Source of the DNA: an uncultured Clostridia bacterium
Lineage (GTDB): Bacteria > Bacillota > Clostridia > Oscillospirales > Acutalibacteraceae
DNA: 64,000 nucleotides
Assembly (NCBI GenBank): GCA_947630285.1
Contig: CANRHD010000001.1
Coordinates: forward strand, 62,001-126,000
Direction of reading: 5' to 3'
The first letter of the stretch is position 1, and every line of letters starts with the position of its first letter. Below, piece after piece: positions 11,988 through 20,550 of the stretch. Position numbers and translations under genes: made by a program. Below the pieces are notes generated by a model. That model was not told the DNA's origin. It made no database searches and worked only from the letters and a program-made list of their open reading frames with translations.

Positions 11988-12064
11988 CGGGGCGTGGCGA
12001 AGTTTGGTATCGCGCTTGGTTCGGGACCAAGAGGCCGCTGGTTCAAGTCCAGTCGCTCCGACCA
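11988..12064 (+). tRNA. tRNA-Pro (CGG anticodon)
   Basis: A 77-nt cloverleaf with CCA encoded. The acceptor CGGGGCG pairs with CGCTCCG, the anticodon stem CTTGG/CCAAG encloses the loop TTCGGGA (anticodon CGG), and the T arm holds TTCAAGT. Its last 45 bases are the left attachment site of the integrated element, so the 3' half present now is probably supplied by the element, and the original 3' half lies at 16118-16162. Confidence 0.96.
12020..12064 (+). repeat. attL: 45-bp direct repeat within tRNA-Pro
   Basis: Identical to 16118-16162, starting in the anticodon loop (TTCGGGACC) and ending with the CCA. Flanking bases differ on both sides, so these are the exact limits of identity. Confidence 0.95.
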
Positions 12065-12072
12065 CTCATAAG

Positions 12073-12119
12073 CCTTGATATTTCAACGATTTTGAAATAT
12101 TGAGGTTTTTATTTTTTTA
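12073..12119 (+). terminator. Element-borne terminator just after tRNA-Pro
   Basis: CCTTGATATTTCAA pairs with TTGAAATATTGAGG (two G-U pairs) around a 5-nt loop, followed by a T-rich run. It begins 8 nt after the tRNA and appears to replace the native terminator displaced to 16165-16201. Confidence 0.75.
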
Positions 12120-12132
12120 TAAAAACAAGCGT

Positions 12133-12154
12133 TTTTCTAACACTTTTCTAACAC
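12133..12154. repeat. Left candidate integrase arm sites (two tandem TTTTCTAACAC)
   Basis: Two adjacent copies of the 11-mer TTTTCTAACAC, identical to 15956-15977 near the other end of the element and in the same orientation. Paired short repeats just inside both att sites are the usual layout of arm-type binding sites of Tn916/lambda-type integrases. Confidence 0.65.
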
Positions 12155-12156
12155 AA

Positions 12157-13305
12157 TTAGAAAGCAAAGGAATTTGACATTGAATTTGCAATTTTATTCT
12201 TTCTCTCAATATCCAAATGAGCGTAGATATTAGCTGTTGTCTGAATGTCAGCGTGTCCGAGCCACTCTTGTATATCTTTTAATTGAAAACCGTTAGCAAC
12301 GAGTAAGCTCGCACAACTATGTCGCAAATCGTGAAAGCGTATTTTTCGCAATCCGTAATGATTGAGAATTCTGCCAAATTTACGGCTGACATAATCCGGT
12401 GTGTACGGTTTGCCGTTATCCCACTTGAATATATAATCGTTTTTAATATATTCATTACCGCAAAGCTTTTGATTTATAATTTCTTTTTCCTTTAACTGCT
12501 TTAATATGGACTTCACTTCATCCGTAATTGGATATGAACGATAGCTTGACTCTGTTTTTGTTTTATCCTTTTCAACAACATCAGAGAAACGGACAACAGT
12601 ATGCTTGATTGTTATCAAACCTCGCTCGAAATCAACGCTATCCCATTTCAGACCGAGCACTTCACTCCGTCTTAATCCAAATAAAACAGTAAAAAAAATC
12701 AAAGGATATAATTGCTCATTCTTAATCAATTCAAACATATTTTGCAATTCGGAATAAGTATAAAAATTTGCGTTATGCTTTTGAATTTTCGGCAGCGAAA
12801 TATACTGATACGGTGTAGATGTAAGCAAATCACTTTTAACAGCTTCTTTCAATGTCTGCTGAATGATAATCATATGTGTATGCAGGGATTTAGCAGACAG
12901 ACCACCTTGACCACGAATTCGACCTCTAACGGATTTTATGTTTACATATTCTTGAATATCTTTTCTTGACAATTCGCATAGTTTTATACCTTTATCAATA
13001 AAATAAGGGTATATGTGAGCGTTGACAATATTTCGATAACCTTGATATGTTATTTTATCAAGTCGAATTTTTGATACTTCAAGCCAATTTAAAACATAAT
13101 CGGCAAACAGAACATCAGATTTTATGAGATTGTCAGCTAATTCCAATTCGGCAATTTTATCATACAAAAATTTTTCAGCTTTCTTTTTATTGCCTTTAAT
13201 TTCAAATCCCGTACAAATCCATTTTTGCTTACGCTTTCCGTTTTTATCAGTTTGATTTATAACGGCATAATATTTGCCGTTTTTAACTTGTAGGCTTCCC
13301 GTCAT
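12157..13305 (-). CDS. int: Tyrosine recombinase/integrase of the element
   Basis: A 382-residue site-specific recombinase. The N-terminal 50 residues form an arm-binding-type domain (VKNGKYYAVINQTDKNGKRK), followed by a SAM-like core-binding domain (about 65-165) and the catalytic domain. Catalytic residues seen: Arg in FGLRRSEVLGLKW, His-Arg in FHDLRHSCASLL, the second His in LGHADIQTT and the tyrosine in NIYAHLD. ATG 13305 has GGAG 7 bases upstream; the longer reading frame from 13344 has no good site. It ends 92 bp from attL, the usual position for a tRNA-targeting integrase. It should insert and excise the element at tRNA-Pro. Confidence 0.95.
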   Translation of the reverse strand: MTGSLQVKNGKYYAVINQTDKNGKRKQKWICTGFEIKGNKKKAEKFLYDKIAELELADNLIKSDVLFADYVLNWLEVSKIRLDKITYQGYRNIVNAHIYPYFIDKGIKLCELSRKDIQEYVNIKSVRGRIRGQGGLSAKSLHTHMIIIQQTLKEAVKSDLLTSTPYQYISLPKIQKHNANFYTYSELQNMFELIKNEQLYPLIFFTVLFGLRRSEVLGLKWDSVDFERGLITIKHTVVRFSDVVEKDKTKTESSYRSYPITDEVKSILKQLKEKEIINQKLCGNEYIKNDYIFKWDNGKPYTPDYVSRKFGRILNHYGLRKIRFHDLRHSCASLLVANGFQLKDIQEWLGHADIQTTANIYAHLDIERKNKIANSMSNSFAF

Positions 13306-13369
13306 AAATAACTCCTTTCCTTTGGAAAGACTACTGTTATACACAAAATTATAACAGAGAATTTGCGAA

Positions 13370-13546
13370 TTATCTACATTGATTTATATAATCAATAAGA
13401 CAGATTTTCGGTATCAAATACTTTTTACCGATTTTTAACGATTTAACAACCCCACTTTTAAGTAAACCATAAAGCGTGTTTTTTCCAATATGCAAAGCGT
13501 TACACGCTTCTTGAACGCTTAAAACATCACGAAAGCTGTCAAACAT
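13370..13546 (-). CDS. xis: Small helix-turn-helix protein, probable excisionase
   Basis: 58 residues with a MerR/Xis-type winged HTH: LSVQEACNALHIGKNTLYGLL, then VVKSLKIGKKYLIPKICLIDYI. This pattern is shared by Tn916-type excisionases and phage-type 'helix-turn-helix domain' proteins. ATG 13546 has GAGGTG 6 bases upstream. It lies between rep (stop 13557, a gap of 10 bp) and int in the same direction, so int, xis and rep are probably one transcript. Its role as directionality factor is inferred from size, fold and position. Confidence 0.8.
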   Translation of the reverse strand: MFDSFRDVLSVQEACNALHIGKNTLYGLLKSGVVKSLKIGKKYLIPKICLIDYINQCR

Positions 13547-13556
13547 ACAAAGCACC

Positions 13557-14531
13557 TCACAATATATAATCCTGCGGATTATGTGAAATCTTTGTTATTT
13601 TAGGCTCAACACCGATATAAAAGTCATCATCCGAAACAAATTCGGTAACCCGATTTATACGGCGAATAAAAGCATTCCATTGTAGAGGTTTTTCCTCTTG
13701 AATGTTTTTATATTGCATTTCCAAAGGTATATTACTGATTATAACAACCTTTGTATAACAAGCAGTTTTATCGTTATATCTTGACGGCAAGTAACAAGGA
13801 TAACAGTCAGTATATTGCAGTAAATCATTTAAAGGAATACCGCCGTAAAATTCGTCAAGGCACAAAACATCTTGACCTTTATAATTACTGAATGGTCTTT
13901 CTTTTGGATAATTAGTAATTTTACAGACATTTTCATATCCGTATTTATCCATTACAGACCGAGTTTTTCCCGTTCCTGTTTTTCCGTAGATGTATTCGAC
14001 ATCAACATTACGCCGCGCATTTTTATATTTTTCATTCAAAAATTCATTTCTGCAACTATCTAAATGAGTTATCTTTGATAAATAACTCGGATGAGCTTCA
14101 ATGATTTCTGCATTAGAACAACCATTGACAAGCATATTCAAAACATCAGCCGATACAGTTTCATTTTTTGTTTGAGTTTCAATAGGCATTTCACCGTGTT
14201 CCTCAAATGTATCAGGTAATGAAGTTATGCTTTTGTCAGCGTGCCGACCTTCTTTTCGAATATAATTCCGATTATCTTGTGATGTACCTTTACAGGCTTC
14301 AATGTGAGCATATGGGAACAATTTTTTAACTCGGGTAAATCCAACTGCGTTTTCACAAACGAAATATAAATGAAAATGCGGAGTATTCTCTTTTGCTCCG
14401 AATTCAAATTCAAAGCAATAATACTGCCATTTTAACTCTTTCATTGTTTCGTTTATCATATCAGCAGTTAATCCGTAATTATCGGGATTATTCTGTGTAA
14501 TCTGATATTTACGAGAACGACTAACAGGCAT
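13557..14531 (-). CDS. rep: CRESS-type replication initiator (HUH endonuclease + SF3 helicase)
   Basis: 324 residues with the full domain plan of Rep proteins of eukaryotic circular ssDNA viruses. The HUH nuclease has motif I YQITQNNP (9-16), motif II PHFHLYF (His52, His54) and motif III NYIRKEG (Tyr90, the expected nicking residue, and Lys93). The superfamily-3 helicase has Walker A YGKTGTGKT (182-190), Walker B VLCLDEF (222-228), and motif C VVIISN with sensor Asn267. Arg290/291 (FIRRINR) are candidate arginine fingers. ATG 14531 has AGGAGG 6 bases upstream. Expected role: nick and join DNA at the origin upstream and unwind it for rolling-circle replication. Homologous Reps are known from some bacterial plasmids and integrated elements, so the family is not new, but the combination here is striking. 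Confidence 0.93.
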   Translation of the reverse strand: MPVSRSRKYQITQNNPDNYGLTADMINETMKELKWQYYCFEFEFGAKENTPHFHLYFVCENAVGFTRVKKLFPYAHIEACKGTSQDNRNYIRKEGRHADKSITSLPDTFEEHGEMPIETQTKNETVSADVLNMLVNGCSNAEIIEAHPSYLSKITHLDSCRNEFLNEKYKNARRNVDVEYIYGKTGTGKTRSVMDKYGYENVCKITNYPKERPFSNYKGQDVLCLDEFYGGIPLNDLLQYTDCYPCYLPSRYNDKTACYTKVVIISNIPLEMQYKNIQEEKPLQWNAFIRRINRVTEFVSDDDFYIGVEPKITKISHNPQDYIL

Positions 14532-14580
14532 CTGTTCCTCCTTTCTGCATAGAATATGCAACAACAATTAAAATTTTCAT
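14521..14580 (-). CDS. 19-codon ORF overlapping the rep start (leader/coupling peptide)
   Basis: Begins ATGAAAATTTTAATT with a strong AAAGGAGG site 8 bases upstream and encodes MKILIVVAYSMQKGGTDAC. Its TAG stop (14523-14521) lies inside the first codons of rep, 8 nt past the rep ATG and in another frame. The placement suggests translational coupling controlling Rep synthesis, as seen for leader peptides of rolling-circle plasmids. No homology can be judged at this size. Confidence 0.55.
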   Translation of the reverse strand: MKILIVVAYSMQKGGTDAC

Positions 14581-14630
14581 AATATATACCTCCTTTCAAT
14601 AATTTTTTTCATATATGGAATATACTATGA

Positions 14631-14683
14631 AATAACACAAATAACACAATTACACAAAAGGGTAATACTAACCTTTTGTGTTA
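14631..14683. other. Putative rolling-circle origin: nonanucleotide hairpin plus iterons
   Basis: A perfect 10-bp inverted repeat, ACACAAAAGG (14652-14661) with CCTTTTGTGT (14672-14681), encloses a 10-nt loop. On the rep-sense (minus) strand the loop reads TTAGTATTAC, holding TAGTATTAC, the origin nonanucleotide of circoviruses and nanoviruses (TAATATTAC in geminiviruses). By analogy nicking would be between the T and A of ...ATT/AC. Iterons TAACACAA occur in tandem at 14633-14640 and 14642-14649, with an inverted copy at 14676-14683 running into the stem. It lies 100 bp upstream of rep, on the same strand sense as in the viruses. Confidence 0.85.
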
Positions 14684-14718
14684 CACCGTTGCGGTGCTAC
14701 CGCACACCGCAACGGTGT
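14683..14718. repeat. 14-bp perfect inverted repeat beside the origin
   Basis: ACACCGTTGCGGTG (14683-14696) and CACCGCAACGGTGT (14705-14718) with an 8-nt spacer. It is much more GC-rich than the rest of the element. No T-run follows on either strand. It may be an operator between the divergent rep and repressor genes, or a second part of the replication origin. Confidence 0.7.
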
Positions 14719-14816
14719 TTAACAACCGCAAAGCAAAACAGATTTGTAAACTGTAATTTACAACATTGTGATTATAGACATATACTATCACTTAAAAACT
14801 TTTTTGTCAATAGGTA

Positions 14817-14845
14817 TTTACAAAATTGTTTTGATATGCTATATT
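14817..14845 (+). promoter_or_regulatory. Promoter of the element repressor gene
   Basis: TTTACA (14817-14822), 17 bp, TATATT (14840-14845), 26 bp before the ATG at 14871, which has AAAGGGG 6 bases upstream. Confidence 0.7.
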
Positions 14846-14870
14846 TATTAAAAAGCGAAAGGGGAAAATT

Positions 14871-15644
14871 ATGCCTTATACTCAACTATTAAATCAACTC
14901 ATTGACGAAAGCAAACTGTCCGCAAAGCAAATTGCAGAAAAATGCAAGGAATTCGGTGTTAATATAACTCCGTCATACATAAGCACTTTAAGAAACGATA
15001 AAAATAACCGCACACCGTCAGATGATGTTTCTGTTGCTATCGCTAAAGCCTGTAATGCAGAAAAGGGATATGAAAACATTTTAGTTGTTGAAGCGTATCT
15101 CGATATTGCACCAAAAGAGATAATAAAACTAATTGAAATGTTGAAAGATGTTTTTACAAATTCTATAATTGGAGCATTTGAAAATAGGATTACAACACAA
15201 CAAATGAAAGAAATTCGAAAACAGTTTGACAATATGCCAATGGCAAAGTTTTTAATTGCATATACATCAGAGAAAGCTATAAGCAGTATAAAAAAGCAGC
15301 CAGGAACGCTTAACATTGTAAGTAAAGATTTTTACAAAGATACTAATATAACCGTTACACAAGAGATAAAACCCGTAGGCTTTTCTATATCGGACAATGG
15401 TATGTACCCTATTATTTCAAAAGGTGATATGGTTAATGTTGAAATACGGGAATACAAAACGGGCGATATTGTTCTGATAAAGAAAAAGGATAAAAAAGCT
15501 AATTTGCTTGCTCGAAAAATTGTTGTCGGTAACAAAAAGCAAATTACACTAATACCGATAAACAATGATTTTCCAACTGAAACAGTAAGCGTTGACGATA
15601 TAATCGTTTTGGGAGTTATAACTCAATTCATACGGCAAATATAA
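14871..15644 (+). CDS. Phage-type repressor: XRE HTH plus LexA/CI-like C-terminal domain
   Basis: 257 residues. Residues 1-65 form a lambda-repressor-like HTH (LSAKQIAEKCKEFGVNITPSYISTLRND). Residues about 165-257 match the beta-rich S24/LexA-type domain (ISDNGMYPIISKGDMVNVE, TGDIVLIKKK, LARKIVVG). In self-cleaving relatives the segment before the methionine is Asp-Ser-Met; here it is Asn-Gly-Met, so the catalytic serine appears absent, although a lysine (ARKIV) remains. It faces away from rep, int and xis across the origin, as expected of a regulator of the leftward genes (inference). Confidence 0.85.
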   Translation: MPYTQLLNQLIDESKLSAKQIAEKCKEFGVNITPSYISTLRNDKNNRTPSDDVSVAIAKACNAEKGYENILVVEAYLDIAPKEIIKLIEMLKDVFTNSIIGAFENRITTQQMKEIRKQFDNMPMAKFLIAYTSEKAISSIKKQPGTLNIVSKDFYKDTNITVTQEIKPVGFSISDNGMYPIISKGDMVNVEIREYKTGDIVLIKKKDKKANLLARKIVVGNKKQITLIPINNDFPTETVSVDDIIVLGVITQFIRQI

Positions 15645-15691
15645 TCACTGCGTGCATTTTCACTTTACCGTAACCGTTAGTTTAACCGAAC

Positions 15692-15757
15692 AAGGCATTT
15701 GCTAAATAAGGGCGAGTTCGTTCGTGCCGATAGTCAGCAAGTGCCTTTTTACTTTTT
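15692..15757 (+). ncRNA. Possible small structured RNA ending in a terminator
   Basis: AAGGCA-T-TTGCT (15692-15703) pairs with AGCAA-G-TGCCTT (15736-15747), followed by T-rich sequence. An inner GGCGAG...TTCGTGCC hairpin lies at 15711-15728. A TATAAT (15640-15645) overlapping the repressor stop could be its -10, but no good -35 is visible. Confidence 0.35.
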
Positions 15758-15797
15758 AAACAATGAGCAAGTCAGATAAACAAGGCGGAAAAGGTAA

Positions 15798-15825
15798 GCC
15801 CTCTTATGAGGGCGTTTTATTTTAT
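15798..15825 (+). terminator. Intrinsic terminator inside the element
   Basis: GCCCTC-TTAT-GAGGGC (15798-15813) followed by GTTTTATTTT. It would stop rightward transcripts from the repressor promoter. Confidence 0.75.
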
Positions 15826-15904
15826 CTGCTGAATAAAGGGGGCAAATCTCTGCCACGCTTGAACTCTTCAGCACCCTTTACCCGTTTTAGTTACTGCCAC
15901 GCAT

Positions 15905-15932
15905 AAAGAAAAACCGCAGATTTTTTCTGCGG
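15905..15932 (-). terminator. Hairpin with T-run on the minus strand
   Basis: CCGCAGA (15914-15920) pairs with TCTGCGG (15926-15932); on the minus strand it is followed by TTTTTCTTT. It may insulate the element from leftward host transcription. Confidence 0.6.
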
Positions 15933-15955
15933 TCATCTTGTATAACAGTAGTCTT

Positions 15956-15977
15956 TTTTCTAACACTTTTCTAACAC
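15956..15977. repeat. Right candidate integrase arm sites
   Basis: Two tandem TTTTCTAACAC copies identical to 12133-12154, followed by a partial third (TTTTCC). 140 bp inside attR. Confidence 0.65.
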
Positions 15978-16117
15978 TTTTCCAAAAAAATTGATTTTTT
16001 ATAGCTTTTGATTTTACTTGATATTTTGCTTTTCATTGTCAAAAAACCTTGATATATCAAGGAAAACGCAACTTTTTATAAAGTGTGATAAATCACTATA
16101 AAACTTATTGTGAAAAA

Positions 16118-16162
16118 TTCGGGACCAAGAGGCCGCTGGTTCAAGTCCAGTCGCTCCGACCA
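16118..16162 (+). repeat. attR: displaced 3' part of tRNA-Pro
   Basis: 45 bp identical to the 3' end of tRNA-Pro. It lacks a D arm and 5' acceptor, so it is an attachment site and not a second tRNA. Confidence 0.95.
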
Positions 16163-16329: not shown

Positions 16330-19300
16330 TTAACGGCTTCCGACAATCATCTGTAAAATCATTTTTGCGTCAATTAAAGAAATGCGCTTATCCTGATTTA
16401 CATCTGCCGCCTTTGCATTGACGCCGCTAAGGGTTCTCAGGTAGGAGAGATGCTGTAATACCCATTTCGCATCGACAACGGAAATTTTTCCGTCGCAGTT
16501 TACATCGCCTATTATAAAGCTTCTCTCGAGAGCGTCAATGGCGTCGAGCAACGCTTTTGCCTGCTTATCGACAAAATCCTGCTTTGTAATGTCGAGCCCG
16601 TATTCCAAGGATTTTAAAACGGCGTTGAGGTTATCTACGCTCTCCTTGGTGTAAACCGACAAATCGTCGGGCACTTTTTTCAGCGCAGAGTCAAGCCTTG
16701 TATAATCGGCGGTTTTGTACTCAAGAGCGTCAATGGCGTCAAGTATCGCCTTAGTCTGCTTATCGACTTCGCTCTGCTCGGTTATATTCTTGCCGTTTAC
16801 ATCGACTGCGAGCGCCAGATTAAGATCGGACAGGTCTTTATAAAGCGAGCGGTCTATTGAGTTGGCCTTGGTGACCGCCAAAAGGTAATCGGTATAGTCG
16901 GCGTCCTTATATACAAGTCCGTCAATGGCGTCAAGTATCGCCTGCGCCTGATCGTCAACCGTTTTCTGCTTTGTAATGTCAAGTCCTTTGACATCGGCCG
17001 AAAGGGCTTCGTTGAGCTCCTCGGGATTTTTGTAAAGGGTCAGGTCAAGCTCGTTTGCCTTTGCCACGGCCTCAATATAAGCCTTATAGTCGGCCGATTT
17101 GTATTTAAGCATTTCTATTGCGCTCAAAATGGCGTTTGCCTGTGCGTCAACAACGCTCTGCTCAATTATTTTTTTGCCGCTCACATCGACCGAAAGCGCC
17201 GCCTCAAGAGCTGTCAGGTCTTCATACAGACCCGATTGAACAGCCTCCTGCGCCTTTTTAACCGCAAGATTATAATTTGTATAGTCTGCCGGCTTGTATT
17301 CAAGAGATTTTATAGCCTCCCCTACCGCTTCGGCATATCCGTCAACAATATCCTGACTATCGGCCTCAAGGTCGTATTTTACGGAATTTAACGCCTCTTT
17401 AAGCTTGGCGACGCTTTCCTCGGTATAAACGGACAGATCCTTGGGGACGCTGTCTATCAAAGCATCGAGAGCCGTATAATCTGCATAGGCGTCCGGCCCC
17501 TTAGCCACGCCGGTCCTTATTTTAACAGGCTCTTTTCCCGTATCCGTGCTTGTGACAACGCAGTAATAATAGGGATAAGAGTATTTGCCGGGATTTAAGG
17601 TCTTTCCCGTTTCGCCGCCTATGGCGGTTCCCGTTGTATTGTTCGGCTCGGTATTTCCGTACCACTGATAGGTTCTGTTGAAGCCGATTATATCCGCAAC
17701 AAAGTCCCCGTTCTTTGGGTTATATTTCATCGGTAAATCCGTTATAAGCGCAGTATCCTGGGTAATTTCCTTTACCTCAAGCCCGTTTTTAAGCGCCCAA
17801 TTATACGCTACCGTACCCTCGGTTGCATAAATCACCGTGTTTTTGGGAACGGCCGCAGTTATCCTTGTGACGGTTGAAGGGAGTAAAACTCCGCTGTTGT
17901 CGGGCAAAACGGAAACGGTTACGGCCTTGTCGAGGATAAGGTAATTAATCTTCATCAAATCGCTTTGGTCGGAAGATTTTTTTGTACTCTCAACGCCCTG
18001 AAATTCAAGCTCTTTTAATGAACTGCAACCGTTAAAGGCGTTGAGCGGTAAGGTTTGAAGCTTTGGCAAATAAACATCTGTAAGAGAACTACAGTTATTA
18101 AACGCCTTTGAGCCTATTTTTTCGAGGTTGGGCATTGAAATGCTTTTAAGAGCGGTGCAGTTGTTGAATGTACTCAAGCCCATATCCACAACATTTTCGG
18201 CGTCGAAATAAATCAGTGAAGTACAGCCCGAAAAAGTACTGCCGCTGCTGTCCAAATTGGAATAATCTATGTATTTCAGGTTCGGGAAGCTTGCCGAGCG
18301 CAGGGATTTACAGCCCGAAAACGAAGCCTTACCCATTATTCTGACTTCGTCCGCCTCTATTTTGGTAAGCTCCGAATCGCCGTAAAACGCATATTCCTGT
18401 ATTGTGGTGACGCCGGGTATCTTGGCCGTTTTTAAGCTTGTGCAGTTTTGAAAAGCGTAACTGCCCAGCGAAGTTACATTCGGTGCGTCAAAAACAACAA
18501 TTTTTGTGTTCTTAAACGCTCCTGTGTCCACCTGAGTAAGCTTGTCGGAAACTATGCTGTAGAAGCCCGAAGCACTTGAAAACGCCTCATGTCCTATAGA
18601 CTGAATATTGCTGAAATCAAAGAATTTAAGGCTGTCGCAATTCTGGAAAGCCCTTTGACCTATTACCTTTAGGCTGTCGCACTCTATCGTCTGAAGATTT
18701 GAACAGTTCATAAACGAACTGCCCGTTACGCCCACGCCGTTTGCCCTGACATAATCGAGATTGGCGCAGTCCGAAAAAGCCGCATCGTCTATCATCTCCA
18801 CGGAATCGGGTATAATGACGCTCTTCATTTGCTTTTTGGCAAAGGCGCCGTAGCCTATTGATTTAACCTCTATTCCCTGTACGGTACGGGGTACAACGAC
18901 ATCTTCCTCGTCGGCGATGTAGCTTGTAATTTCGCCGGCGGTCGTAATTTTGTATTTTGAATCGTCGTCGGGAAATTCCCTTACATATTCCGCCGTGGCG
19001 TCCTTGCTTATTTTCATACCGTCCTTGTACGCCCAGGCGGTAATCGAAGTATCGTACTGTATTGAAATGGGGCTGTTGTACTGGCGGTTATAATAGTCGG
19101 GCATATTTGAAGTGTGATAGTAAATTGTAGCGTCCGGATCGTTGCTTTGGAGACTTACCTTAAAGTTTTCGGTAAATCCGCCGCTTTCCCTGCTGAAAAC
19201 GGGTGAAGAAGCCGTCTCTATATCCCGTGTAATATACTCCATATAAAGACAGCCGACCTTGCCCGACTCGACTATGGAATTCTTAGTCTTAAAGCCGAAC

Positions 19301-20550
19301 GGAACGGTGTATTCCTGAAGCTTTGCCCTGATTTCATCAACGCTTATGCCTGCGTTGTCAAGCATTACATAGGTAACCGCCGCCGCAACAAACGGCGAGG
19401 ACTGGGAGGTACCCGAAAGCTCTTTGTATGTGTTTCCCAAATACGAGCTTTTAATGCTTACGCCGGGAGCGGCAATGTCACATTCTCCGCCGTAGTTTGA
19501 AAAGCCGGGAACGCCTACCATATTTTCGCCGCAGGACATAACGGTTATGCACTCGGGGAAACAGGCCGGCGAATAGTAAAACTTGGAAATATCCGCAAAG
19601 TCATTGCCTGCTGAAACTACAACGGGGATATTCTTTTCGTAAGCCTTTTTTACCGCATCGTGCATAAGCTCCGACTTGGTTCTTCCGCCGAGGCTCATAT
19701 TAATTACATCTACGCCGTCCTCAACGGCCTGCTCGATACCGAGAGTTATCTCCAGGTCTGTTCCCTCGCACTCCTCGTTGAGTACCTTATAGGGCTTTAT
19801 TTTTACATTGTCAAGAGTGTTGGAGGCAACTATTCCGGCAACATGCGTACCGTGTCCGTTATCGTCCTCACTGCTGTCTCCGCCGACGGAATTAAAATCG
19901 TTTTCTATCAGCCTGCCCTTTAAAAGCTCATGGTCGGAGTCTGCGCCGGAGTCAATGACAGCCACGGTAATTTCCTTGTCATATACGATGTTATTTTCAT
20001 TAAGATAATTCTGCAAAGCGGTAATTCCCACGGTTTCGGTTACGCCTGCCATAGAATTTTCCGCAGAAGAAGCCGCCGCCGAGACGCTGTCGGCCTCAAC
20101 CGAGCCTGCGTAAACCATACTGTCCTTTTCCGCATATTCTACGCAGTCCAACGAATTGTAATATTCAACAGCCCTGTCGGCCTCCTGCTCCGATGAAAAC
20201 TGAAATACATGCAGATTGTCATAGCCCTCTGCCGTTTTTACCGCACCGAGAGAGTCAACGGCTTTTTTTGATTTTACTATAACCCTTGCCTTAGCCGCAT
20301 TTCTGTGGTTTATAATCTCCTGTTCTTCGCTCGGTTCTTCGCCGTCCTCTGTTTGAGGTTCAAGCTTCATCAGGGAAAACGCCCGGAGCTTCTGCTCTTT
20401 TGAGTAAATCAAATCCATAACATCCTGAGTAAACGCCTCAAGCTCGGATTGACCGACAGACGGTATTTCAGCCGCAAGCACAGAAAAGCACGGAGAAATC
20501 ATCAGTATTATTAAAACAAACGATAATAACACGGATAATAATTTCTTCAT
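16330..20550 (-). CDS. Secreted subtilisin-like protease with LRR, FIVAR repeats and dockerin
   Basis: 1406 residues. Domains in order: signal peptide (1 to about 26), inhibitor-I9-like propeptide (about 85-147), S8 peptidase with Asp200 (AVIDSG), His233 (DDNGHGTHVAG) and Ser382 (SGTSQSSP). Then come a chitobiase-C-like domain (about 435-520), a long BspA-type LRR_5 array (about 535-900), an Ig-like region, five or six FIVAR-type three-helix repeats (about 1035-1345), and a C-terminal type-I dockerin with two calcium loops (DVNCDGKISVVDAKWVL and DVNQDKRISLIDAKMIL). The dockerin implies attachment to a cohesin scaffold on the cell surface or a cellulosome-like complex. GGAGG lies 10 bases before the ATG. 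It is monocistronic, with a promoter at 20651-20679. Confidence 0.93.
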   Translation of the reverse strand: MKKLLSVLLSFVLIILMISPCFSVLAAEIPSVGQSELEAFTQDVMDLIYSKEQKLRAFSLMKLEPQTEDGEEPSEEQEIINHRNAAKARVIVKSKKAVDSLGAVKTAEGYDNLHVFQFSSEQEADRAVEYYNSLDCVEYAEKDSMVYAGSVEADSVSAAASSAENSMAGVTETVGITALQNYLNENNIVYDKEITVAVIDSGADSDHELLKGRLIENDFNSVGGDSSEDDNGHGTHVAGIVASNTLDNVKIKPYKVLNEECEGTDLEITLGIEQAVEDGVDVINMSLGGRTKSELMHDAVKKAYEKNIPVVVSAGNDFADISKFYYSPACFPECITVMSCGENMVGVPGFSNYGGECDIAAPGVSIKSSYLGNTYKELSGTSQSSPFVAAAVTYVMLDNAGISVDEIRAKLQEYTVPFGFKTKNSIVESGKVGCLYMEYITRDIETASSPVFSRESGGFTENFKVSLQSNDPDATIYYHTSNMPDYYNRQYNSPISIQYDTSITAWAYKDGMKISKDATAEYVREFPDDDSKYKITTAGEITSYIADEEDVVVPRTVQGIEVKSIGYGAFAKKQMKSVIIPDSVEMIDDAAFSDCANLDYVRANGVGVTGSSFMNCSNLQTIECDSLKVIGQRAFQNCDSLKFFDFSNIQSIGHEAFSSASGFYSIVSDKLTQVDTGAFKNTKIVVFDAPNVTSLGSYAFQNCTSLKTAKIPGVTTIQEYAFYGDSELTKIEADEVRIMGKASFSGCKSLRSASFPNLKYIDYSNLDSSGSTFSGCTSLIYFDAENVVDMGLSTFNNCTALKSISMPNLEKIGSKAFNNCSSLTDVYLPKLQTLPLNAFNGCSSLKELEFQGVESTKKSSDQSDLMKINYLILDKAVTVSVLPDNSGVLLPSTVTRITAAVPKNTVIYATEGTVAYNWALKNGLEVKEITQDTALITDLPMKYNPKNGDFVADIIGFNRTYQWYGNTEPNNTTGTAIGGETGKTLNPGKYSYPYYYCVVTSTDTGKEPVKIRTGVAKGPDAYADYTALDALIDSVPKDLSVYTEESVAKLKEALNSVKYDLEADSQDIVDGYAEAVGEAIKSLEYKPADYTNYNLAVKKAQEAVQSGLYEDLTALEAALSVDVSGKKIIEQSVVDAQANAILSAIEMLKYKSADYKAYIEAVAKANELDLTLYKNPEELNEALSADVKGLDITKQKTVDDQAQAILDAIDGLVYKDADYTDYLLAVTKANSIDRSLYKDLSDLNLALAVDVNGKNITEQSEVDKQTKAILDAIDALEYKTADYTRLDSALKKVPDDLSVYTKESVDNLNAVLKSLEYGLDITKQDFVDKQAKALLDAIDALERSFIIGDVNCDGKISVVDAKWVLQHLSYLRTLSGVNAKAADVNQDKRISLIDAKMILQMIVGSR

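What the first reader, a model, noticed from the sequence alone, without database searches (positions are those of the whole stretch)
12020..16162. Bacterial integrative element built on a CRESS-DNA-virus-type replication module
Seen: perfect 45-bp tRNA-Pro repeats bound int, a xis-like gene, a Rep with HUH motifs (NNP; HFH; YIRKE) and SF3 helicase motifs (Walker A/B, motif C Asn), and a divergent repressor. Known: this Rep architecture defines eukaryotic circular ssDNA viruses; related Reps exist in some bacterial plasmids and integrated copies. Inference: this is a complete 4.1-kb integrate/excise/replicate unit and a living relative of the plasmids from which such viruses may descend.
Basis: partly seen in the sequence, partly recalled or inferred. 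Interest (0 to 1): 0.95.

Follow-up and report, generated by a model that had tools for sequence, protein, structure and literature searches.

The report
Bacterial integrated plasmid with viral origin
A 4.1-kb DNA element inserted in a tRNA gene of a bacterial chromosome carries an integrase, a replication protein related to those of circular DNA viruses of animals and plants, and the same nine-base start motif on a hairpin, so it is likely a mobile plasmid whose copying system shares an ancestor with those viruses.

Summary
A 4,098-bp element sits in tRNA-Pro(CGG) between perfect 45-bp repeats and encodes a tyrosine integrase, an excisionase-like protein, a HUH+SF3 Rep and a divergent S24-type regulator. 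The kind is known: integrated pCRESS1-3/p4M-like plasmids (PMC6668415, 2019). Upstream of rep, on its strand, a 10-bp hairpin displays TAGTATTAC, the circovirus nonanucleotide, followed by tandem TTGTGTTAT repeats, a layout like porcine circovirus origins. The motif on a hairpin of at least 6 bp recurs in 80 of 91 non-redundant loci; 59 permuted cores average 0.19 loci, maximum 3. Stems vary but stay Watson-Crick. In p4M the loop reads TAGTGTTAC. Some filamentous phages share Rep and origin. One relative is a circular 3,634-bp contig with an attP; another same-genus element has a different HUH Rep and no such hairpin. Rfam RF03070 'ssNA-helicase' is very probably this DNA origin. Nicking and excision are untested. 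A new member of a known kind; my searches found no printed report of the shared origin.

The parts
11988..12064 (+). tRNA-Pro (anticodon CGG), intact; integration target
   Evidence: ARAGORN; Rfam RF00005 61.9 bits
12020..12064 (+). attL: 45-bp direct repeat forming the 3' part of tRNA-Pro
   Evidence: 100% identical to 16118-16162
12134..12154 (+). Predicted integrase arm-type sites, two TTTCTAACAC repeats (12134, 12145)
   Evidence: The only copies in the 64-kb window are at 12134, 12145, 15957 and 15968; the role is inferred
12157..13305 (-). Tyrosine integrase, 382 aa (ORF runs to 13344)
   Evidence: PF00589 1.5e-28, PF14659 1e-10; phrog_1 3.3e-70
13370..13546 (-). Excisionase-like helix-turn-helix protein (ORF runs to 13555)
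   Evidence: TIGR01764 39.5 bits, cut-off 28.8; PF12728 2.2e-12
13557..14531 (-). CRESS-type Rep, 324 aa: HUH nuclease (T12, H52/H54, Y90/K93) and SF3 helicase (GKTGTGKT, D226-E227, N267)
14632..14649 (-). Two tandem TTGTGTTAT repeats directly 3' of the origin hairpin: predicted Rep-binding iterons
   Evidence: sequence; repeats after the stem in relatives exceed shuffles; binding is inferred
14652..14681 (-). Predicted double-strand origin: 10-bp stem ACACAAAAGG/CCTTTTGTGT with loop TTAGTATTAC; nonanucleotide TAGTATTAC at 14662-14670; predicted nick between 14664 (T7) and 14663 (A8)
   Evidence: DNA fold z -6.5 for 14600-14760, which also holds the second hairpin; conserved in 80 of 91 loci; single TAGTATTAC in the window
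14683..14718 (.). Second perfect hairpin (14-bp stem) next to the origin; role unknown, possibly an operator or transcription terminator
   Evidence: 18 of 23 members of the clade, the window counted, have no stem of 8 bp or more at this place
14871..15644 (+). Divergent HTH + S24-type regulator (likely repressor), 257 aa
   Evidence: PF00717 9.4e-9; HTH_3 0.0033, under its cut-off; phrog_4 2.7e-9
15957..15977 (+). Predicted integrase arm-type sites, right end (15957, 15968)
   Evidence: role inferred
16118..16162 (+). attR: second 45-bp repeat

Best explanation
This is a 4.1-kb plasmid-like element of the pCRESS1-3 (p4M-like) kind integrated in a tRNA-Pro gene, and it is predicted to excise as a circle and copy itself by rolling circle from a hairpin origin bearing TAGTATTAC, the nonanucleotide of circoviruses. 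Inferred cycle: Int, helped by the Xis-like protein, recombines attL with attR into a 4,098-bp circle and restores the tRNA locus. Rep binds the tandem repeats beside the hairpin and melts it. Its HUH site with Tyr90 nicks TAGTATT/AC, and its SF3 helicase unwinds the strand while host polymerase extends the 3' end. Rep then rejoins the displaced strand, and the circle re-enters a tRNA-Pro 3' end. The divergent S24-type regulator likely keeps the rep-xis-int genes silent. Shown by sequence: the att repeats, the genes, the motifs, the hairpin and its conservation and covariation. Inferred: nicking, excision, repression and transfer.
For: Perfect tRNA att repeats and open genes. In 15 of 96 related loci repeats that include a tRNA 3' end (Arg, Pro, Leu, Thr, Ser, Met, Trp, Lys) bracket rep at 2.7-4.4 kb. 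L004 has a 141-bp exact terminal repeat, giving a 3,634-bp circle with rep, origin, xis, int and a tRNA-Pro 3'-end attP. In the nearest genome 217 bp next to tRNA-Pro are 97% identical to the element while the flanks are 80-89%: recent transfer, then deletion. Origin: 80 of 91 non-redundant loci (59 permuted cores: mean 0.19, maximum 3; opposite strand 0); 79 of 81 HAGTATTAC occurrences carry a stem of at least 6 bp against 27 of 1,395 permuted ones. Hold-out: 14 more loci; rep found in 13, of which 12 have 1,000 nt upstream; 10 of 12 have the motif, 8 of 12 with a stem of at least 6 bp. Same-genus element G020 has the same int/xis/S24 genes but a REP_ORF2-G2P Rep and no such hairpin. Rep relatives.
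Against: No experiment and no reads. No clean empty site with these flanks was found. PF02407 is just under its cut-off for this Rep. Of the 91 loci, 11 failed the strict origin test; in L088 and L095 no such origin was found; in the hold-out L208 and L212 show none. In 48 of the 79 loci tested no tandem repeat of 6 nt or more was found after the stem. The circular contig is from a relative in the same 6-row Rep clade (98/89), not from this copy, and a tandem array could give the same terminal repeat. Rep was not placed in a tree with reference pCRESS1-9 and viral sequences.
Confidence: 0.86

Rival explanations
1. The element is a satellite or stripped-down derivative of filamentous phages (Inoviridae): it makes ssDNA with the shared Rep and origin and is packaged by a helper inovirus.
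For: The same Rep family and the same origin motif occur in loci with a Zot-like gene within 5 kb (23 of 91 loci), including named inoviruses L097 and L098; hold-out inoviruses L216 and L217 have the hairpin too. The element has no recognised structural genes.
Against: No Zot match in the whole host genome. The window lies in a 23-row clade (99/99) made of 21 int-xis-rep loci and two in which neither int nor Zot was found near rep; the 22 Zot rows lie elsewhere in the tree. No packaging signal is known.
Confidence: 0.12
2. The hairpin is a structured RNA (Rfam RF03070, 'ssNA-helicase') that regulates rep, not a DNA origin.
For: RF03070 matches 14633-14681 at 31.1 bits, below its gathering score of 41.5; it passes gathering in 3 of 20 loci, at the same hairpins (L043, L061, L097).
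Against: The loop is the viral nick site. In the best register over the first nine stem positions of 81 occurrences there are 707 Watson-Crick, 4 G-T and 18 other pairs (the register was picked for most Watson-Crick pairs, which favours them). Tandem repeats follow in many loci, as in PCV. The hairpin is absent where rep is replaced by another HUH Rep (one case).
Confidence: 0.04
3. A dead relic: the element is fixed and no longer excises or replicates.
For: One copy, no reads; a relative in G001 is reduced to a 217-bp remnant.
Against: All four ORFs are open, both att repeats are identical and the origin hairpin is intact. The best homologue (93% identity over 96% of Rep) stands for 7 contigs.
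Confidence: 0.1
4. The shared nonanucleotide is convergence dictated by the HUH active site, not common descent of the origin with viruses.
For: A short motif; CRESS virus Reps bind the nick site with a T(-4):A(+1) base pair (PMC9973303, passages seen), which limits possible sites.
Against: Stem, loop, strand and 3' tandem repeats match as a set. The Rep tree in PMC6668415 (passages seen) puts pCRESS1-3 as sister to circo-, nano- and smacoviruses. The p4M hairpin differs by one letter.
Confidence: 0.3

Closest known systems
Integrated pCRESS1-3 plasmids (p4M-like cluster), Kazlauskas et al. 2019, PMC6668415 (abstract, Results part 2 of 3 and passages seen)
   Same: HUH+SF3 Rep with motif III unlike YLxH; site-specific chromosomal integration; no viral structural genes.
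   Different: Nothing fundamental. The words nonanucleotide and stem-loop do not occur in its main text; its supplement was not readable here.
Bifidobacterium pseudocatenulatum plasmid p4M (NC_003527)
   Same: Homologous Rep (26.9% identity over 67%); hairpin upstream of rep with loop TAGTGTTAC.
   Different: Free 4,488-bp plasmid with no annotated integrase; one letter of the nonanucleotide differs.
Circoviridae / porcine circovirus origin and Rep (PMC2690592 and PMC5656780, passages seen)
   Same: Nonanucleotide (T/n)A(G/t)TATTAC at a stem-loop apex, 10-nt stem, tandem repeats 3' of the stem, Rep on the same strand; PCV2 Rep is the best solved relative by sequence.
   Different: No capsid gene here; integrates with a tyrosine integrase; bacterial host.
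Inoviridae with CRESS-type Rep (bajarodino viruses 2, 13, 30, 56, 74)
   Same: Rep of the same family and TAGTATTAC near rep (for virus 13 only a 4-bp exact stem).
   Different: 5.7-10.2 kb genomes with other phage genes; Zot is annotated in four of the five stretches seen (not in the part of virus 30 taken).
Rfam RF03070 ssNA-helicase
   Same: Covers the origin hairpin plus following bases.
   Different: Filed as an sRNA family; this window and 17 of 20 related loci are under its gathering score.

Membership tests
pCRESS1-3 / p4M-like integrated plasmid | Rep with HUH nuclease plus SF3 helicase | tested here: met
   Conserved motifs in 24 aligned Reps; PCV2 full-length Rep matched over both domains; fold search
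pCRESS1-3 / p4M-like integrated plasmid | Motif III not YLxH (separates it from pCRESS4-8) | tested here: met
   YIRKE; Y and K invariant in A1; criterion from PMC6668415
pCRESS1-3 / p4M-like integrated plasmid | Site-specific integration, direct repeats at the borders | tested here: met
   45-bp tRNA-Pro repeats
pCRESS1-3 / p4M-like integrated plasmid | No viral structural proteins | tested here: met
   Only the four named genes have family matches; ten other ORFs of 47-139 aa gave none in PHROGs or Pfam at E 0.01
pCRESS1-3 / p4M-like integrated plasmid | Falls inside clade pCRESS1, 2 or 3 with reference sequences | not tested
   Only p4M was at hand as a named reference; it lies on a very long branch (4.03)
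CRESS-DNA virus (Cressdnaviricota) | Nonanucleotide stem-loop origin | tested here: met
   wording for Circoviridae from PMC5656780
CRESS-DNA virus (Cressdnaviricota) | Capsid gene | tested here: not met
   No further ORF with a family match in 4.1 kb; a capsid unlike any model would be missed
Inoviridae | Zot/pI-like assembly gene | tested here: not met
   None in the whole genome
Integrative element with tyrosine integrase | Excises to a circle with attP | tested here: inconclusive
   Circular contig with attP in relative L004; not testable for this copy
Rfam RF03070 ssNA-helicase | Gathering score 41.5 bits | tested here: not met
   Window 31.1 bits; 3 of 20 related loci pass

The most novel reading that the evidence does not exclude
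Rep and origin travelled together from bacterial elements to viruses: the complete origin of circoviruses and nanoviruses (nonanucleotide, hairpin, adjacent tandem Rep sites) already exists in a living family of bacterial integrative plasmids and filamentous phages, so the plasmid-to-virus transition was acquisition of a capsid gene by an otherwise unchanged replicon.
Probability: 0.6. Interest if true: 0.82.

Novelty: new member of a known kind. Interest (0 to 1): 0.66.

Why it matters
In the papers I saw, the bacterial ancestry of circo-, nano- and smacovirus replication rests on Rep proteins. A shared DNA origin, whose stems and neighbouring repeats change while the nick site stays, is independent evidence and can be tested with one nicking assay. 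It also gives a simple signature for finding these elements and inoviruses, probably explains Rfam RF03070 as a DNA origin, and shows plasmids and filamentous phages drawing on the same virus-like replicon.

Tried and rejected
Clean empty site: searched 39 same-genus genomes with the 45-bp att (8 have it, own included). Five (G034, G023, G029, G022, G028) hold a single full match in a tRNA-Pro, and no relative of the window's int, xis, rep or S24 protein was found in the stretches taken, but their flanks differ from the window's; four of the five (not G029) also have one or two partial att-like copies of 16-38 nt some 160-350 bp downstream. G036 begins at the tRNA and shows an element-like stretch about 285 bp on. 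G001 keeps a 217-bp remnant. So occupancy varies, but the junction test was not clean.

The idea that the second hairpin (14683-14718) is a conserved origin part was dropped: 18 of 23 clade members, the window counted, have none there. A distant DNA search of plasmids gave three short matches of 2% of the query; the first viral-contig scan with a single sequence gave one locus. An integrase search of 200 family genomes (39 with a match at E 1e-70, own included) was not followed up.

Element-length contigs: among the 120 proteins listed of 599, I counted 67 from source 'lgn' alone; 40 of those 67 have a longest contig of 3.2-4.4 kb, 20 shorter, 7 longer. This suggests free circles or occupancy differences, but those contigs could not be read.

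Literature: no report of the nonanucleotide in pCRESS elements was seen in the listings of searches, nor in passages of PMC6668415, PMC8780604, PMC10378824 (it looked for the motif in SPHINX/BMMF circles and did not find it), PMC2702318 and PMC3164639. Supplements could not be read, and the paper I recall as describing ssNA-helicase (10.1093/nar/gkx699) is not held (one unrelated listing).
Full report
What is there. Between exact 45-bp repeats at 12020-12064 and 16118-16162, the first being the 3' part of an intact tRNA-Pro(CGG), lies an AT-rich element of 4,098 bp. It holds, on the minus strand and in one direction, rep (13557-14531), an excisionase-like HTH gene (13370-13546) and a tyrosine integrase gene (12157-13305), and divergently an HTH/S24-type regulator (14871-15644). 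The start codons are my choice, from ribosome-binding sites seen. Ten other ORFs of 47-139 aa gave no match in PHROGs or Pfam at E 0.01. Two TTTCTAACAC repeats lie inside each end and nowhere else in the window; I infer integrase arm sites.

Rep. Pfam gives RNA_helicase above cut-off and Viral_Rep just below it. In 24 aligned Reps the HUH pair, the motif III tyrosine and lysine, and the Walker A residues are invariant, and Walker B and motif C nearly so. A single-sequence search of solved structures finds PCV2 Rep at 6.4e-13; a profile finds PCV2 Rep 1.3e-22, redondovirus Rep 7.4e-14, and duck circovirus and nanovirus nuclease domains (virus names). The model (mean pLDDT 88.6, pTM 0.61) matches redondovirus and PCV2 Rep first in the PDB, with parvovirus, calicivirus, picornavirus and MCM proteins further down; the named rows among the best 50 of the viral library are Reps. 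Motif III is YIRKE, not YLxH, so by the criteria of PMC6668415 it belongs with pCRESS1-3, and its only match in the plasmid collection is p4M, which names that cluster. That paper already reports that 97.5% of Reps outside pCRESS7 and 9 are in site-specifically integrated elements. The element itself is therefore a new member of a known kind.

The intergenic DNA 5' of rep folds as two adjacent hairpins; as DNA the region has z = -6.5 against shuffles. The rep-proximal one is a 10-bp perfect stem with loop TTAGTATTAC at 14652-14681, on the rep strand. TAGTATTAC occurs once in 64 kb (0.21 expected), so alone it would mean little; the comparison carries the weight. From 97 loci with rep (window; the best 80 of 221 confirmed genome-contig loci; viral contigs; same-genus and same-family genomes; p4M; two inoviruses) I kept 91 under 97% Rep identity. 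In 80 of 91 a NANTATTAC sits in the loop of a stem of at least 6 bp within 1,000 nt upstream of motif I: 60 TAG-, 12 AAG-, 7 CAG- and one TATTATTAC; 59 permuted cores give a mean of 0.19 loci and at most 3; the opposite strand gives none. A slightly different upstream window gave 79 of 91. Of the 11 misses, L074 and L094 have the hairpin when the whole locus is scanned, L059 has an imperfect one, L025 and L040 have one elsewhere in the locus, L023 has the motif without a stem, L012 and p4M (L096) have hairpins with GAGTGTTAC and TAGTGTTAC, L084 has only 33 nt upstream, and in L088 and L095 none was found. Not conditioning on pairing, 79 of 81 HAGTATTAC occurrences have a stem of at least 6 bp, against 27 of 1,395 for permuted 8-mers. 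All four Watson-Crick pair types occur at each of the nine inner stem positions. Best-register counts over those positions are 707 Watson-Crick, 4 G-T and 18 other. The register was picked for most Watson-Crick pairs, but G-T is rarer than other mismatches, which speaks for DNA pairing.

Hold-out. Fourteen further loci were then fetched. Rep was found in 13 (not L214); 12 have 1,000 nt upstream (L206 has 158), with Rep identities of 37-78% to the first set. Ten of 12 carry NAGTATTAC and 8 of 12 with a stem of at least 6 bp; L211 and L215 have shorter exact stems; L208 and L212 have none.

Likeness to circoviruses. [quoted passage not shown] For PCV the stem is 10 nt, and hexamers downstream of it (CGGCAG) bind Rep. 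Here two TTGTGTTAT copies follow the stem at 14632-14649. Among 79 loci, 31 have a direct repeat of at least 6 nt, spacing 7-12, in the 30 nt after the stem, against 3.1 in mononucleotide shuffles; the repeated unit differs between loci (for example GTAACA, GTCGCA). That these repeats bind Rep is inferred, and 48 of 79 loci do not show them by this test.

Rfam. RF03070 'ssNA-helicase' overlaps this hairpin in the window below its gathering score and passes it in 3 of 20 loci, each time on the same hairpin. I take it to be part of this origin family, filed as RNA. I recall, but have not read here, that its authors considered single-stranded DNA.

Mobility. In 15 of 96 related loci, repeats that include a tRNA 3' end bracket rep at 2.7-4.4 kb: tRNA-Arg, Pro, Leu, Thr, Ser, Met, Trp and Lys. 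The 17-nt repeat at tRNA-Trp (L031) and the 2.7-kb spacing of L003 are the less sure ones; five more loci have such repeats at 7.7-12.5 kb, which need not bound these elements. Many of the others have their tRNA or second copy outside the stretch held. L004, a 3,775-bp contig, has a 141-bp exact terminal repeat, so a 3,634-bp circle with rep, origin, xis, int, a 140-aa ORF that looks like an HTH regulator by eye, and a tRNA-Pro 3' end as attP; its record label 'Alphaproteobacteria' is probably a binning error. In G001, the nearest genome, the first 217 bp of the element next to tRNA-Pro are 97.2% identical while the flanks are 79.9-88.5%, which implies recent transfer followed by deletion.

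A natural control. G020, same genus, has int, xis and the S24-type gene (66-68% DNA identity in parts), with 46-bp tRNA-like repeats about 3.85 kb apart, but a REP_ORF2-G2P Rep and no NAGTATTAC. The hairpin goes with the CRESS-type rep, not with the integration genes. This is one case.

Relation to phages. Of 91 loci, 31 are int-xis-rep, 23 have a Zot-like gene within 5 kb of rep, 13 have an integrase without the xis gene and 24 have neither. In a tree of 87 rows the window lies in a 23-row clade (99/99) with 21 int-xis-rep rows and two in which neither int nor Zot was found near rep; the 22 Zot rows lie elsewhere. No Zot match exists in the host genome, so a resident helper is not seen.

Spread. 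Rep matches occur in 7 of 98 relatives and in 12 of 391 genomes of the class, own genome included in both. By record titles the best 80 loci are mostly uncultured Clostridia. Two same-genus genomes appear to be deposited Eubacteriales/Clostridia MAGs, judging by equal contig lengths.

What is not shown. Nicking, binding, excision, repression and transfer are inferred. The place of this Rep among pCRESS1, 2 and 3 and relative to viruses was not tested. Common descent of the origin with viruses is my preferred reading, but convergence on a shared nick site is not excluded.

Noticed in passing
L160 (G020:C3:138500-146500): Element with the same int, xis and S24-type gene but with rep replaced by a REP_ORF2-G2P HUH Rep; 46-bp tRNA-like repeats about 3.85 kb apart.
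   Followed up: partly
window 14633-14681: Rfam RF03070 'ssNA-helicase' overlaps the origin hairpin; it also hits inovirus L097 at its origin. It is probably a DNA origin filed as RNA.
   Followed up: partly
window 14683-14718: A 14-bp perfect hairpin next to the origin, not conserved in most of the clade.
   Followed up: partly
window 14871-15644: The S24-type regulator reads DNGM and ARK where, from recall, LexA-like proteins have the catalytic Ser and Lys, so it may not self-cleave; G020's copy reads DDGM and ARK.
   Followed up: no
G001 (L173, from 4086): A 217-bp remnant of a near-identical element beside tRNA-Pro, followed by DNA not found in the window.
   Followed up: yes
L167, L168, L170, L171 (G034, G023, G022, G028): Downstream of tRNA-Pro(CGG) lie further partial copies (16-38 nt) of its 3' end about 160-350 bp on, perhaps scars of other insertions.
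   Followed up: no
L004, L015, L042, L051: Contigs labelled Alphaproteobacteria, Phascolarctobacterium, Muribaculaceae and Treponema carry these elements; probably binning errors of small mobile DNA, possibly wider hosts.
   Followed up: no
window 16330-20550: Beside the element, a 1,406-aa protein with subtilase, BspA-type leucine-rich repeat and dockerin domains.
   Followed up: no
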